Source: Mycosarcoma maydis (lineage: Eukaryota > Basidiomycota > Ustilaginomycetes > Ustilaginales). Taken from it: a stretch of DNA of 64,000 nt. The stretch's first letter is position 1. Every line of letters starts with the position of its first letter. The position numbers and the translations under genes were made by a program. Shown piece after piece: positions 29,417-63,920 of the stretch. A model generated the notes under the pieces. That model did no database searches. It worked only from the letters and a program-made list of their open reading frames with translations, and had not been told where the DNA came from. Location of the stretch: NCBI RefSeq assembly GCF_000328475.2, contig NC_026479.1, forward strand, positions 124,001 through 188,000, read 5' to 3'.

Positions 29417-29521
29417 TGGAAACACAGGGGATCGAACCCCGGACCTTCGCTTTACGGAACCACGAACTCTGATGGGTCGTTGGTATGCGGAAGCGACGTC
29501 ATACCACTAGACCATATTCCC
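29417..29521 (-). tRNA. Intron-containing tRNA, probably tRNA-Ala(CGC)
   Basis: Read on the minus strand, the acceptor GGGAATA pairs with TGTTTCC through a G3-U70 pair. The D arm is TGGTCTAGTGGTATGAC, the anticodon stem TCGCT/AGCGA is perfect, the variable loop is AGGTC, the T arm is CGGGG-TTCGATC-CCCTG (a B box), and the discriminator is A73. Loop plus intron total 40 bases, giving a 33-base intron after position 37. Strict counting gives anticodon CGC (alanine), and G3-U70 with A73 and A37 also argue for alanine. It forces C rather than the invariant U at position 33. Shifting the stem by one base restores U33 but gives CCG (arginine) and breaks the 27-43 pair. A T6 terminator follows. Confidence 0.85.
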
Positions 29522-32688: not shown

Positions 32689-34708
32689 CTTCCGGATATA
32701 CGATGGAGAGAGGGATGCATGTACGTGCTTGAATGCTGAGAAGCTGGCTCTCAGACGGTGGAAGAGTGGAGGCTTGTCGATATAAGAAACGATAGGTTGC
32801 ACACCAGGTACAAGGCCAGATCAAGGGAGCTGTAGCGATTAGAAGGCTGTGACTGATAACGAGATGTCGTGGGTTGGAAAGAATGAGATGTCGAACGGCT
32901 TGAGATGGGAGGGCAAAGGTAAACGCAACAGATCAGCTTCGAGAATCTTTTGGAACGTGGAGAAGAAGGAAGTGCCAGAACACTGAGACATGCACGCTAG
33001 AACAACTGTGGCAAATGAGAGGCCAAGTATGGTGCTGATAGCGCCTCCCGAAGACCGGACTTGAACCGGCACGAATCGGTTAGGATCCGACTGTTTGCTA
33101 TGACTGACGTAGATCGTGTCCATTGCCAGATTGAGATCTGGCTGCCGTCGCATCGCAAGGCAGCTTGTACAGAGTTGCACAAAAGCGAAAGTCGCCGGCG
33201 CTTTGAGACAAGCTAGTGCATGAAGTTTCGAAAGTGGGCTCAACGAGAAGCGGCGGCTCTGCATCCTGCAACAAGGTTATTCTGGTGCAAGAAGGTGGAG
33301 GTGGATTGCCGCTGAGATTGCCGTTCAATCGACACATGGCCATTACGCAGCTACACATCATGGTCCAGACAGTGCAATACGGCACCGCCAAGCATAAATC
33401 GCATGGTGTGCTGAGAAAGGTGGACTGAGCCGCATGCATGTGATCGGAAGCGCCTGAAATCCAGCCTTTCAGCAGGGCCTGGACCGCGGCGTTGCAAACA
33501 GCCCACAGCAGCTAGAAGAAAGGTCGGATGACGGACATGGACATAGCCAGATTGGATGATTGAAAGCCCAAATTTGACTATGACAGCATTGCGCAGCACG
33601 ATATGCTGTTTAGGTTGAGCTTAAAACTCCGACACTGGAGCCGAACATAAGATCGAACCGATTTGAGGAACAAACATAATCGGACCGATTCTGCGGACTG
33701 ACGAGCCGATCCGATTTACGCGTCGGCGGATCTTCCACAAAATCGTGAAATAATCAATCAGTCGCAAGTGAATCGTGAATCTCAAATAATCTTGAGATCA
33801 CGGAAGGCGACACTCGTGACTGAATCAGGCAAACTTCTTGTTGATAGCCAGGGACTCTAGGCAATCTTGCAAGCTTGGGCCGGCAATTTGGTCCACCGAA
33901 GCTTTGAACAGAGACTGTTCGCAGAAGAATGCTCTCGAATCCACGTGAGACTCGCCGGATGTTGGCAATGGTGGAAAGGAAGCAAGATGCCACGTACCTT
34001 TTGCAATGCGTGTGAGTACGCGGAGAAGCGGATTATATGGTGTATGCGAGGTGAGGGCGTATCTCAGAGGGTCAGGCGATGCGACCAGAAGATGGCGATT
34101 CGTGAGGCGGAGACAAAGGATCAAGATGAAAGATCAGGATTCAACCTGACTCGAGTCGGTTCGATAGGTGGACTTGACAGGTTGATACGGCAGGGGTGGA
34201 TCGAAGCTGGCAGCTGTTTGGCGTATACAGCGGAAGGTGGAATGGTTTGAAGAGACTTTACCGAGGCAGCCGAGGCGACAACAGGTCGAGACAAAGAATG
34301 GTTTGCTAATGGTGGCCGCCTAGCAGATGTTATATGTGTGCGTGTGCGGTATGCAGCGCGAAACGTCTGTTGTTGTGTCGGAAAGGGAGTTGAGATCGAA
34401 TGACGACAAGACAGTATGCCTTGACGCCAGGACGTCAGCAAGGAGAAAGAGAAGGGGGGAAGGGTAGGGGTTTATGGGCGTGGGGAGTCGAGGTGCGCTG
34501 GGACAAGGTCAGGAAATGACTGAGTGGATGAGTGGATGAGAGGATGAGAAGGTGAGAGAGAAGAGTAAAGCCGTGAGTGCAACTGCGGAGCGAGGCTCTG
34601 GCTGATTTTGGCGAAAGCGACCAAGCGTCAAGCGTTGCTGCGGCTCAAACCTTGGCAGCAAGAATGCAGTGGAAGGAAGGGATGGAAGACGGATCGAGTC
34701 GAGCACAA

Positions 34709-34853
34709 AGAACAGAAGTTCAAGGATTGGCACACACAAGCAGGGCGAAGCGGCTTGGCGCCCGTCGACGAATCTTAAATAAGAACAGAAGTTCAAGGAT
34801 TGGCACACACAAGCAGGGCGAAGCGGCTTGGCGCCCGTCGACGAATCTTAAAT
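34709..34853. repeat. 73-base direct tandem duplication
   Basis: Two copies (34709-34781 and 34782-34853) starting AGAACAGAAGTTCAAGG and ending CGACGAATCTTAAAT. They appear identical apart from the last few bases, so the duplication is probably recent. Confidence 0.93.
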
Positions 34854-35194
34854 GAGAACTTGTGACAGTCCATAGTAAAGTGCGGGTGTGTGGCAAACAA
34901 AGACTCAGCAGCCGCACTTTTTTTGTGAAAATGAAGAAAAACCGCTGCACACCCATCTCAACAACCGTAAAAAACCAGTTATCTCATTCAGGGAGAAACG
35001 AGCATCACAGAGACAAGCGTTCACGAAGGAGAGCGTAAGAGCAGTTACTTGCCGCCACCTGACGACACAGTTCTTGAACCATACGATTGAACGATCAAGG
35101 AGAACAACATTGTGGAGCATACAAGAACAAATGTGACGGAGGGCACAAGTAAGGGAAAGCAACAAGCAACCCCGAGGCACACACTCATCTTAGG

Positions 35195-36638: not shown

Positions 36639-38456
36639 CTACTCCTTGCGGCGAACCTTGTCCATGCGCTTCAGACCAGGAACGGGCAAGTCCAAAAACT
36701 CGATCAATTCCTTCGCTGCCGCCTTCGTATCAGGTCCCTTACCGGGAAGCAGGCTGAATGGGGGCAGGGAGAGATCACGTTTCGTCTCGACCTCTGCAGG
36801 CTTGGAGTACATGTTCTTCACAAATCCTCCAGCCGCATTGTCAGCTGCATCTTTGACGCCCAAGAGTGCATCACGTGCCTTGTCACTCGTGTCAAGAATG
36901 GTCGAGACCACAGGGTCTTCAGAAGCACGCTTGACCGGGATTCCCGAAACCTGACCATTGTTGTGGAGTAGTCCGTCGGCGAAAAGGTTCTTCTCTCCAA
37001 GAGACCGGACTGGTAGTCGGATAGGTTGGAATTCAGGAAGACCAAGATTCTTGGTAGCGCCGTCAATGGCACCTTTGACGATCTGAGCGCAGCCGAAGGA
37101 AGTGCAGACCTGGTTCACGGTGGAAATTCCTTGAACAGCGGGGCTCGCGGCTTGCTTGACCGGGCTGAGCGCAAGAGGAATACCATTCTTCATTGCTTCT
37201 TGGCCGAGAGTGCTGCCAAGGTCCTTGACACTGCCGAGGTTGACACCGTCAGGTGAGATAGAGTCGCGCTTGCTGCCTCCCAAAAGACCACCGATCAAGC
37301 TCTTGGCGCGTTCCAGGTCTTGCTCGTTGCCAGTCTTCAGACCGAGGTCGAAGGGCTGGACGGAATCTTCTTCTCGCTTGATCGGGAGAAGGCCCTTGAG
37401 AAGAGCCTCAGCCGAGTCGAGATCCCCCTTGTTACCCGTCTTGAGGCCAAGGTCAACTGGCTGTACATCGCGCTTGGAAGCACCGGGCAAGGGAAGCGAG
37501 TCGAGTGGGAGTGAGTTGAGGGGGATCTTGGTACCGAAAAGGTCAAGGCCGCTGCTCTCGTCTCGCTTGGTGGGGGGTTTGGGCAAGGGGAGCGAGTCGA
37601 TGGGGAGCGAGTTGAGGGGAATCTTGGTACCCAGAAGGTCAAGACCGCTGCTCTCGTCTCGCTTGGTGGGGGGTTTGGGCAAGGGGAGCGAGTCGATGGG
37701 GAGCGAGTTGAGGGGAATCTTGGTACCCAGAAGGTCAAGACCGCTGCTCTCGTCTCGCTTGGTGGGGGGTTTGGGCAAGGGGAGCGAGTCGATGGGGAGC
37801 GAGTTGAGGGGAATCTTGGTACCCAGAAGGTCAAGACCGCTGCTCTCGTCTCGCCTAGCGGGGACTTTGGGCATGGCAGGCCTAGACAATTTCTTGCCAA
37901 GAATGCTGACGTCAATAGGTTCTTCAACAGAACGACGATTGAGCGGGTGCACAGTGCGCTGGCCGAGCGTCTGATGGTTCTCGGGCAAGAACTGGGTTCC
38001 CTCACCTGGCTTAAGCGAATTGAGGGCGTCAAGCAGACGCTTTTCACCAGCAACGGAAGAATCGGTGGCAGGTGACACCTGGTTGCTATGGTCGCCCTCA
38101 TTGTCGAGCGCGCCCAAGATGGGCAGAGAGGGCACCAGGCTGCCACCAAGCTCCCTCTTGATCGTGATACCTTTGCTAGAGAATTGCTCAACAACAGGCT
38201 CCAGATGGTCCGAGGGAAGTAGGCGCCTCTGCTCTTCGATCATAGGTGGAGGGGTTGTGACCATTTTGGCGGCATCGGCGAGCTCCTTGGAGGCGGGCGC
38301 GAGGTTGAGGTAGGTGAGCGGGGTGATAGGTTTGCCCTTGTCGTCCACACGCGTGAGTCCCAATGGCGTAGTGACCGAGTCAGCATGAGTCTGACCAACG
38401 CAGAGCGCAATAACAACGACGCTAGCGAGCGTCGCAAACGACGAGGTGAGCTTCAT
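36639..38456 (-). CDS. Secreted KEX2-type repeat precursor protein, function unknown
   Basis: The product is 605 residues from the ATG at 38456, with a signal peptide at about 1-25 (MKLTSSFATLASVVVIALCV...). At least twelve KR or RR pairs punctuate the chain: residues 100-101, 139-140, 174-175, 201-202, 233-234, 265-266, 297-298, 328-329, 360-361, 396-397, 509-510, 559-560 and 596-597. Between 203 and 329 lie four tandem 31-32 residue units beginning DESSGLDLLGTKIPLNSLP; the first three are identical. Two related units (VQPVDLGLKTGN, VQPFDLGLKTGN) follow. The spacing predicts Kex2 release of near-identical Pro/Leu-rich peptides of about 30 residues, like U. maydis Rep1 and other KEX2-processed repeat proteins. 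A lone Cys pair (VCTSFGCAQ) lies near 449-456. No tyrosine-containing core of the ustiloxin type is seen. Confidence 0.85.
   Translation of the reverse strand: MKLTSSFATLASVVVIALCVGQTHADSVTTPLGLTRVDDKGKPITPLTYLNLAPASKELADAAKMVTTPPPMIEEQRRLLPSDHLEPVVEQFSSKGITIKRELGGSLVPSLPILGALDNEGDHSNQVSPATDSSVAGEKRLLDALNSLKPGEGTQFLPENHQTLGQRTVHPLNRRSVEEPIDVSILGKKLSRPAMPKVPARRDESSGLDLLGTKIPLNSLPIDSLPLPKPPTKRDESSGLDLLGTKIPLNSLPIDSLPLPKPPTKRDESSGLDLLGTKIPLNSLPIDSLPLPKPPTKRDESSGLDLFGTKIPLNSLPLDSLPLPGASKRDVQPVDLGLKTGNKGDLDSAEALLKGLLPIKREEDSVQPFDLGLKTGNEQDLERAKSLIGGLLGGSKRDSISPDGVNLGSVKDLGSTLGQEAMKNGIPLALSPVKQAASPAVQGISTVNQVCTSFGCAQIVKGAIDGATKNLGLPEFQPIRLPVRSLGEKNLFADGLLHNNGQVSGIPVKRASEDPVVSTILDTSDKARDALLGVKDAADNAAGGFVKNMYSKPAEVETKRDLSLPPFSLLPGKGPDTKAAAKELIEFLDLPVPGLKRMDKVRRKE
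37470..37850 (-). repeat. 96-base coding tandem array (four units)
   Basis: Three 96-base units identical or nearly so at the nucleotide level, plus one diverged 93-base unit, each ending in an AAG-CGA/CGC Lys-Arg pair. Silent-site identity suggests recent expansion or homogenisation by unequal exchange. Confidence 0.95.
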
Positions 38457-63071: not shown

Positions 63072-63920
63072 ATGAAGGCAGCTCTGCTCACAGGCTCGAC
63101 GACAGCGTTGGTAGCAGCGTTGGCGATCTCGTCGACATGGGCTGCACCTCTGGAAAAGCGTCTGGCCATGGTTTTGTCTCTTGAAGCATCACCAACGGTT
63201 CCTTTGATCAACCTCGACGATCTTGTTCCGTCACCTACTATTCCACCCATCGCAGGCGAGATTGTCAGCATCATCACCTCGGTCGTCGACGGTGTGACGA
63301 GCTTGATACCCACGACTATTCCGTCGCCCTCGTTGCCTGCGGCGCTGCAAGACTTGGTTCCGGACGCTACCATGTCTATCAACGTGAATGTACCTACACC
63401 TACAGTTCCTCCTGAGGCCGAGGTGCTAGCGCATCTGGCTCAGGGAGCTCTCAACGCGATCCCCACAATGCTGATGAAGAACCTGGCCCAAATCCAGAGC
63501 GACCTCAGCTCTGCGCTTGCTGTCGCTGCCACGGCCACTCCGACACCCGTGGTGTACGTGACGAAAGATGATGCAGGTCTCGATGTCACGAGGACGTCGA
63601 GCGCCACCATCGCAGCGTTTGCAACACAAGGTGTCATCAATCCCTGGTCGATTCTTGCCAACGCTCTGCCGCAACCCACTGATGTAGTGCAAGAGGTCAC
63701 CTCGGTGATCGGTGGCGTCACATCGATTCTCAAGGTGCCTGCTCTACCGAAGCCGACAGATCTGCTGCCGCTGCTCAACTCGGCACAGCTGCCTCAGATC
63801 GACATTCCGGGTCTGTTGGGTGACAAGCAACATCTCTGCATCAAGGACGACAATGGAAACCAGATCGGACTCTGCCCGAATGGTCCACTGATCAACGACA
63901 GCGAGACAATCGTTATCTGA
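63072..63920 (+). CDS. Small secreted protein of unknown function
   Basis: The product is 282 residues with an ATG in good context (AACAATGAAG). A signal peptide at about residues 1-25 (MKAALLTGSTTALVAALAIS...) is followed at 28-30 by EKR, a likely Kex2 propeptide site. The mature chain is Pro/Thr/Val/Leu-rich with repeated LPTPT-, VPTPTVP- and PKPTDLLP-like segments. Its only cysteines form a pair near the C-terminus (LCIKDDNGNQIGLCPNG) which could make one disulphide-bridged loop. No enzyme motif is visible. Size, secretion and lack of recognisable domain fit a smut effector or wall-associated protein, but that is inference. It shares with the KR-repeat precursor the style of short LP-rich segments. 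Confidence 0.8.
   Translation: MKAALLTGSTTALVAALAISSTWAAPLEKRLAMVLSLEASPTVPLINLDDLVPSPTIPPIAGEIVSIITSVVDGVTSLIPTTIPSPSLPAALQDLVPDATMSINVNVPTPTVPPEAEVLAHLAQGALNAIPTMLMKNLAQIQSDLSSALAVAATATPTPVVYVTKDDAGLDVTRTSSATIAAFATQGVINPWSILANALPQPTDVVQEVTSVIGGVTSILKVPALPKPTDLLPLLNSAQLPQIDIPGLLGDKQHLCIKDDNGNQIGLCPNGPLINDSETIVI

What the first reader, a model, noticed from the sequence alone, without database searches (positions are those of the whole stretch)
36639..38456. New KEX2-processed repeat precursor predicted to release near-identical Pro/Leu-rich peptides
Signal peptide, thirteen dibasic KR/RR pairs, three identical 32-residue units plus a diverged fourth, and two units of a second repeat type are all seen directly. 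Such precursors in fungi yield pheromones, surface-active repellents (Rep1) or cyclic ribosomal peptides. The peptide sequence here (DESSGLDLLGTKIPLNSLP...) matches none I know. Near-identical DNA repeats imply recent homogenisation, so copy number may vary between strains.
Basis: partly seen in the sequence, partly recalled or inferred. Interest (0 to 1): 0.78.

Follow-up and report, generated by a model that had tools for sequence, protein, structure and literature searches.

The report
Smut-fungus precursor of many secreted peptides
A maize-smut gene encodes a protein that looks built to be secreted and cut at basic-residue pairs into about fourteen short peptides; smut fungi and related yeasts share it, and the repeat that drew attention is the part that has recently multiplied in this lineage.

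Summary
It has three 32-aa A units identical in DNA, a diverged fourth, and two B units.

Twenty-five relatives were found; 14 are named, 13 of them from smut fungi or related yeasts. Cut sites are conserved: K/R in dibasic pairs stays basic in 96% of relatives, single K/R in 61%. One site is weak, dibasic in 14 of 24 proteins. One kexin gene was found in the genome. It meets the sequence criteria of a KEX2-processed repeat protein (KEP), a known class.

The emphasis changes. The A unit is single-copy in 20 of 24 proteins and less conserved (0.56) than the B units (0.68, 0.73). Most single-copy segments are conserved too. Two relatives lack exactly two A units: copy-number variation or assembly collapse. 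A Ste13-type pheromone or Tyr-cyclised peptide is disfavoured. Whether earlier KEP catalogues list this gene could not be checked. Function is inferred: linear, perhaps cell-surface peptides.

The parts
36639..38456 (-). ORF, 605 aa: the peptide precursor
38382..38456 (-). signal-peptide-like residues 1-25
   Evidence: hydropathy; alignment
38223..38381 (-). segment 26-78, best conserved mature segment (mean pairwise identity 0.75), ends in RR
38154..38222 (-). segment 79-101, ends in KR; this site is dibasic in 14 of 24 proteins, a single R in 10
38037..38153 (-). segment 102-140 (LDNEGD motif), ends in KR; site dibasic in 24 of 24
37932..38036 (-). segment 141-175, ends in RR; site dibasic in 24 of 24
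37851..37931 (-). segment 176-202, least conserved single-copy segment (0.50), ends in RR
37755..37850 (-). A unit 1, DESSGLDLLGTKIPLNSLPIDSLPLPKPPTKR
37659..37754 (-). A unit 2, DNA-identical to unit 1
37563..37658 (-). A unit 3, DNA-identical to unit 1
37470..37562 (-). A unit 4, diverged; its LPGASKR end resembles the single A unit of several relatives (LPGxKR/RR), so probably the older copy (inference)
37374..37469 (-). B unit 1 (DLGLKTGN...GLLPIKR), has positional counterparts in relatives
37266..37373 (-). B unit 2 (DLGLKTGN...GLLGGSKR), a second positional counterpart
36927..37265 (-). segment 398-510 with a CX4C pair (C451, C456) invariant in the 24 aligned proteins; ends in KR, site dibasic in 24 of 24
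36777..36926 (-). segment 511-560, ends in KR; site dibasic in 19 of 24
36666..36776 (-). segment 561-597, ends in KR; site dibasic in 24 of 24
36642..36665 (-). basic tail 598-605 (MDKVRRKE)

Best explanation
A KEX2-processed peptide precursor shared by smut fungi and related yeasts. A signal peptide would send the protein into the secretory pathway; kexin would cut after KR/RR; trimming of the basic ends would release about fourteen linear peptides, thirteen of 21-51 residues and one of 111. The sequence features and their conservation are shown; secretion, cutting and trimming are inferred. Most likely role, inference only: extracellular peptides that coat or modify the fungal cell surface, comparable in role to the Rep1 repellents but without detectable similarity to the Hum3 part compared. 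The A unit was recently multiplied in this lineage, which would raise the dose of one of several conserved products. Confidence is for the precursor mechanism; for the surface role alone I would say 0.4.
For: 15 KR/RR against a shuffle mean of 3.1, 0 of 10,000 shuffles reaching 15. Signal-like start. Sites 139, 174, 396, 509 and 596 dibasic in 24 of 24 aligned proteins, scored within a few columns. K/R in dibasic pairs (20 positions) basic in 0.96 of up to 17 non-redundant relatives, single K/R (36 positions, 35 scorable) in 0.61, p = 2e-6. Residue after the pair is D/E in 109 of 272 sites, 0.118 overall. One kexin-type gene found on contig C7, E = 6e-159 to solved kexin. AlphaFold2 mean pLDDT 36.5, no confident fold. 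No other segment as hydrophobic as the start, none at the C-terminus. Named hits include Moesziomyces, Pseudozyma hubeiensis and Kalmanozyma, which I recall as anamorphic plant-surface yeasts; this favours a general role.
Against: No expression, secretion or peptide data. Site 100 is a single R in 10 of 24 proteins and site 559 is not dibasic in 5 of 24. The test sets gapped columns aside and leaves out residues 200-329, which hides the loss at site 100. Hydrophobic moments of the predicted peptides do not exceed shuffles (lowest fraction 0.068), so surface activity gets no support there. The low pLDDT may reflect a shallow alignment of 24 sequences. Rep1 was not located in the genome and not compared.
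Confidence: 0.75

Rival explanations
1. The peptides are effectors released into the plant apoplast, acting on the host rather than on the fungal surface.
For: U. maydis repeat proteins with Kex2-type sites are counted among its effectors (PMC5923269 passages); four of five U. maydis KEPs change expression in a time course with the host (PMC6339444 passages), although I could not check that this gene is one of them.
Against: Relatives occur in Moesziomyces, Pseudozyma hubeiensis and Kalmanozyma, recalled as anamorphic yeasts, and in smuts of different hosts (recalled), with nine of the mature segments at 0.60-0.75 mean pairwise identity. Of nine other window ORFs scanned by Pfam, five carry ordinary enzyme, transporter or RNA-binding domains, one has only sub-threshold matches and three none; this was no survey for effectors.
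Confidence: 0.25
2. The peptides are extracellular signals between fungal cells, pheromone- or hormone-like.
For: The architecture resembles alpha-factor precursors, and such signals are proposed for some basidiomycete KEPs (PMC6339444 passages).
Against: X[AP] follows 18 of 272 dibasic sites, against a fraction of 0.18 expected from composition. Many different products rather than one repeated core. Basidiomycete sexual pheromones are a-type only, as stated in PMC6339444.
Confidence: 0.15
3. The protein is an uncut secreted or wall protein whose basic pairs and repeats are incidental.
For: Site 100 is not dibasic in 10 of 24 proteins; processing was not observed.
Against: Dibasic positions are better kept than single basic ones; five sites are dibasic in 24 of 24; no confident fold and no hydrophobic C-terminal end.
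Confidence: 0.1
4. The repeats feed a cyclised ribosomal peptide pathway of the ustiloxin type.
For: KEPs include such precursors (PMC7329392 abstract and passages).
Against: No Tyr or Trp in the A and B units. No UstYa (PF11807) match in the genome, but none of the 14 control genomes rang either, so absence is not shown.
Confidence: 0.03

Closest known systems
KEX2-processed repeat proteins (KEPs; PMC6339444, PMC7329392)
   Same: signal-like start, repeated motif, KR/RR between the repeats
   Different: the repeats are 6 of about 14 predicted products; the single-copy segments other than 176-202 are conserved at 0.60-0.75, near the B units at 0.67-0.68
Rep1 of U. maydis (652 aa, 12 repeats; PMC4617103 table)
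   Same: several kexin-bounded peptides of a few tens of residues from one precursor in the same species
   Different: 605 aa here, largest product 111 residues rather than 228, hydrophobic moments not above shuffles.
Hum3 of U. maydis (828 aa)
   Same: tandem KR-bounded repeats of similar length
   Different: no hydrophobin or other Pfam match here; no significant similarity to the 579-residue part of Hum3 compared (E = 0.47)
Rsp1 (260 aa) and Rsp3 of U. maydis
   Same: secreted, repetitive, smut
   Different: by the papers' descriptions Rsp1 repeats are 18 or 21 residues, and Rsp3 is predicted not to be Kex2-processed and has a Cys-rich region; no sequence comparison made
Ece1 / candidalysin precursor of Candida albicans
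   Same: one precursor, several different kexin-cut peptides (recalled)
   Different: no comparison made; named only

Membership tests
KEX2-processed repeat protein (KEP) | signal peptide | tested here: met
   six most hydrophobic 12-residue windows all within residues 6-22, THA/DS follows; hydropathy only, no SignalP
KEX2-processed repeat protein (KEP) | at least three repeats of one motif (pipeline of PMC6339444) | tested here: met
   four A units, three of them DNA-identical
KEX2-processed repeat protein (KEP) | KR/RR/KK between the repeats | tested here: met
   a KR or RR bounds each of the six units; sites conserved in relatives
KEX2-processed repeat protein (KEP) | actual cleavage by kexin | not testable with these tools
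   kexin gene found; no peptide data
alpha-pheromone-type precursor | Ste13 XA/XP dipeptides after the Kex2 site | tested here: not met
   18 of 272 sites, fraction 0.18 expected from composition
dikaritin / ustiloxin-type RiPP precursor | Tyr-containing core in the repeats | tested here: not met
   0 Tyr and 0 Trp in the A and B units
dikaritin / ustiloxin-type RiPP precursor | UstYa (DUF3328) gene nearby | tested here: inconclusive
   no match in the genome, but no control genome rang
Hum3 / hydrophobin | hydrophobin domain | tested here: not met
   no Pfam match
Rep1 repellent | amphipathic peptides | tested here: inconclusive
   helical and strand moments not above shuffles at 0.05 for any segment, but no Rep1 peptide was at hand as a positive control
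Rep1 repellent | amyloid-like fibrils on hyphae | not testable with these tools
   experiment needed

The most novel reading that the evidence does not exclude
A multi-hormone-like polyprotein of smut fungi: one gene that delivers a fixed, ordered set of about nine different conserved peptides (segments 26-78, 79-101, 102-140, 141-175, B1, B2, 398-510, 511-560, 561-597; the second and third fused in species that lack site 100) in set proportions, with the dose of the A peptide tuned by rapid gain and loss of units between strains.
Probability: 0.25. Interest if true: 0.65.

Novelty: new member of a known kind. Interest (0 to 1): 0.36.

Why it matters
KEP-derived peptides are widespread in fungi and their functions are largely unknown (PMC9769878, abstract). 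This gene gives a conserved case in a genetically tractable model, with a defined list of predicted products, a contrast between a stable set of peptides and a fast-changing repeat, and a possible copy-number difference that can be scored in strains. If the single-copy segments are real products, searches centred on repeats overlook most of what such precursors make.

Tried and rejected
Pfam and NCBIfam gave no family for the window protein. Pfam on all 24 aligned members gave two weak single-member matches, best E 0.03 and 0.041, taken as chance. PDB sequence searches with the protein and with the profile found nothing. AlphaFold2 gave mean pLDDT 36.5, so no fold search was run and the second structure job was not used. 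Searches of the window's genome returned only this gene, plus one opposite-strand match (E 1.2e-7) at the same place. The Hum3 part did not lead to Rep1. A pheromone-response motif, ACAAAGGGA (recalled), is not enriched in the window: 15 matches with up to one mismatch, 11.95 expected, 22 of 100 shuffles as many. The phage and viral-contig searches found no relatives. Five papers were not held. Eight paper searches showed me no report naming this gene, but its locus tag is unknown to me and supplementary tables could not be opened, so this is weak. Amphipathicity was tried as support for the Rep1-like role and failed.

Dropped rows: P0025 and P0026 (a gene model with a stretch that does not read like its relatives, and a partial one) were left out of the alignment, so 24 of 26 hits were aligned. 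The homologue searches scored only the 7,996 candidates sharing most words. The script undercounts B units in P0016, whose sequence shows more B-like units. The column counts at residues 201-328, and the A-unit figures, suffer from misaligned repeats; the text uses instead.

Full report
What is there. Window 36639-38456, minus strand, is an ORF of 605 codons. The six most hydrophobic 12-residue windows all lie in residues 6-22 and are followed by THA/DS, as expected of a signal peptide. Cutting after each KR or RR gives segments of 78, 23, 39, 35, 27, 32, 32, 32, 31, 32, 36, 113, 50, 37, 6 and 2 residues: fourteen predicted products once the signal peptide and the short tail are set aside. The pair count is 15 (11 KR, 4 RR), not 13; shuffles of the same composition average 3.1 and reach at most 11 in 10,000. 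A units 1-3 are identical in all 96 bases; A4 differs at 8 of 27 codons compared. The two B units differ at 22 of 27 codons compared, 13 silently, so that duplication is older. There are three Cys: one in the signal-like start and a pair, C451 and C456, in segment 398-510 that is invariant in the alignment. There is no N-glycosylation sequon and no strongly hydrophobic C-terminal end.

Which organism. The genome holding the window has 19,664,356 bases in 27 contigs, and the window lies on a contig of 1,879,391 bases. I recall this as the Ustilago maydis 521 assembly. One result supports it: a gene on contig C14 with a hydrophobin domain and an 837-codon open frame carries KR-bounded repeats, and a review describes U. 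maydis Hum3 as 828 residues with seventeen repeats of 31-36 residues and a hydrophobin domain (PMC4617103, passages).

Relatives. The homologue search found 26 proteins including the window's own, and a profile search found the same 26. Fourteen of the 25 relatives carry a source name: thirteen from Ustilago, Sporisorium, Pseudozyma, Moesziomyces, Melanopsichium and Kalmanozyma, and one filed under the plant Cichorium endivia, probably contamination. Eleven have none. Only candidates sharing five-residue words were scored (7,996), so more distant relatives may be missed. In the window's own genome only this gene was found, apart from one opposite-strand match at the same place.

Are the cut sites conserved? 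Scored within a few columns in 24 aligned proteins, sites 139, 174, 396, 509 and 596 are dibasic in 24, site 77 in 23 (one gap), site 602 in 22, site 360 in 20 (four lack the unit), site 559 in 19, and site 100 in 14, the other ten having a single R. Around the A units the columns misalign. By direct cutting, a dibasic pair stands just before the first A unit in 23 of 24 proteins, and A and B are separated by one in 21 of 24 (not in P0004, P0009 and P0021). As a control, in up to 17 relatives under 90% identity to one another, K/R in dibasic pairs (20 positions outside residues 200-329) is basic in 0.96, single K/R (36 positions, 35 scorable) in 0.61, and D/E stays acidic in 0.68; Mann-Whitney p = 2e-6 for the first two. 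Gapped columns are set aside there, which hides the loss at site 100. On balance the sites are under constraint, site 100 excepted.

Which peptides are conserved? Mean pairwise identity by segment in 18 non-redundant proteins is 0.75 for 26-78, 0.60-0.68 for 79-101, 102-140, 141-175, 398-510, 511-560 and 561-597, 0.67-0.68 for the B columns and 0.50 for 176-202. The A columns are unreliable there, so the units were compared directly: a 20-residue A core averages 0.56 in 18 proteins, the last B unit 0.68 and the penultimate B unit 0.73 in 15. The A unit is found in 24 of 24 aligned proteins, single-copy in 20; the window protein has four, and P0002, P0003 and P0012 have two. B units number one to three by that script, an undercount for P0016. 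The last and penultimate B units are positional counterparts: 0.68 and 0.73 between species, against 0.58 between the two within a protein, 15 proteins. In nine proteins with three B units, the extra one is a near-copy of its neighbour in three (0.93, 0.93 and 1.00 in P0005, P0007 and P0012) and quite different in others (0.41-0.48 in P0014, P0022 and P0023).

Copy number. P0002 equals the window protein without exactly two A units and has no other difference; P0003 is the same with three substitutions. Both come from a source labelled lgn, on three contigs and one contig, which I take to be short-read assemblies (recalled). Collapse of identical repeats in assembly could produce the same result, so this suggests strain variation without proving it.

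How it probably works. One gene with the kexin P domain was found in the genome, on contig C7; its product matches solved kexin at E = 6e-159. A paper names UMAG_02843 as the U. maydis KEX2 homologue (PMC9767968, passages); that it is this gene is my inference. The residue after the pair is acidic in 109 of 272 sites, against 0.118 overall, and XA/XP follows in 18 of 272, below the fraction of 0.18 expected, so there is no sign of Ste13 trimming (near-identical proteins are included in these counts). AlphaFold2 finds no confident structure (mean pLDDT 36.5), with low-confidence helices in the B units. These results fit linear peptides released from a disordered precursor. The role is open. I favour cell-surface peptides because the family spans smuts of different hosts and yeasts I recall as anamorphic, but the amphipathicity that would support a Rep1-like function is not above shuffles.

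What is known. KEPs were named in 2019 (PMC6339444, search listing and passages) and surveyed again in 2020 (PMC7329392, outline, abstract and passages). U. maydis is reported to encode fifteen repeat-containing effectors, eight with shown or predicted Kex2-type sites (PMC5923269 passages; PMC8528282 passages), and five KEPs, four of them differentially expressed in a time course with the host (PMC6339444). The tables naming them could not be read here, so this gene may already be listed. In Coprinopsis, knockout of six KEP genes gave no apparent phenotype although KEP peptides were detected (PMC9769878, abstract and passages), a warning for functional expectations.

Verdict. A conserved KEP of smut fungi and related yeasts by every sequence criterion that could be tested: a new member of a known kind as far as could be checked, with an unusual balance between a conserved set of different peptides and one recently amplified unit.

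Noticed in passing
window 29417-29521 (-): tRNA by Rfam (46.7 bits); ARAGORN with its bacterial setting reports none. The 105-base span suggests an intron.
   Followed up: no
window 34708-34859: a 73-base unit in 2.1 tandem copies, 98% matching, with no listed ATG ORF of 150 aa or more over it.
   Followed up: no
window 63072-63920 (+): 282-aa ORF with a signal-like start and a KR shortly after it, no Pfam match.
   Followed up: no
proteins P0004 and P0009: Pseudozyma hubeiensis relatives are named Ser/Thr-protein kinase Sgk2; no Pfam domain is listed for them and the Pfam scan of the 24 members shows no kinase, so the name looks wrong.
   Followed up: partly
protein P0025: a relative filed under the plant Cichorium endivia; much of its sequence reads like the Moesziomyces proteins, probably contamination of a plant assembly.
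   Followed up: no
L006 1489-3228 (-), genome contig C14: the Hum3 part held starts with four repeats that are identical at the protein level (the first cut by the locus end), so recent repeat amplification is not unique to the window gene; DNA not compared.
   Followed up: no
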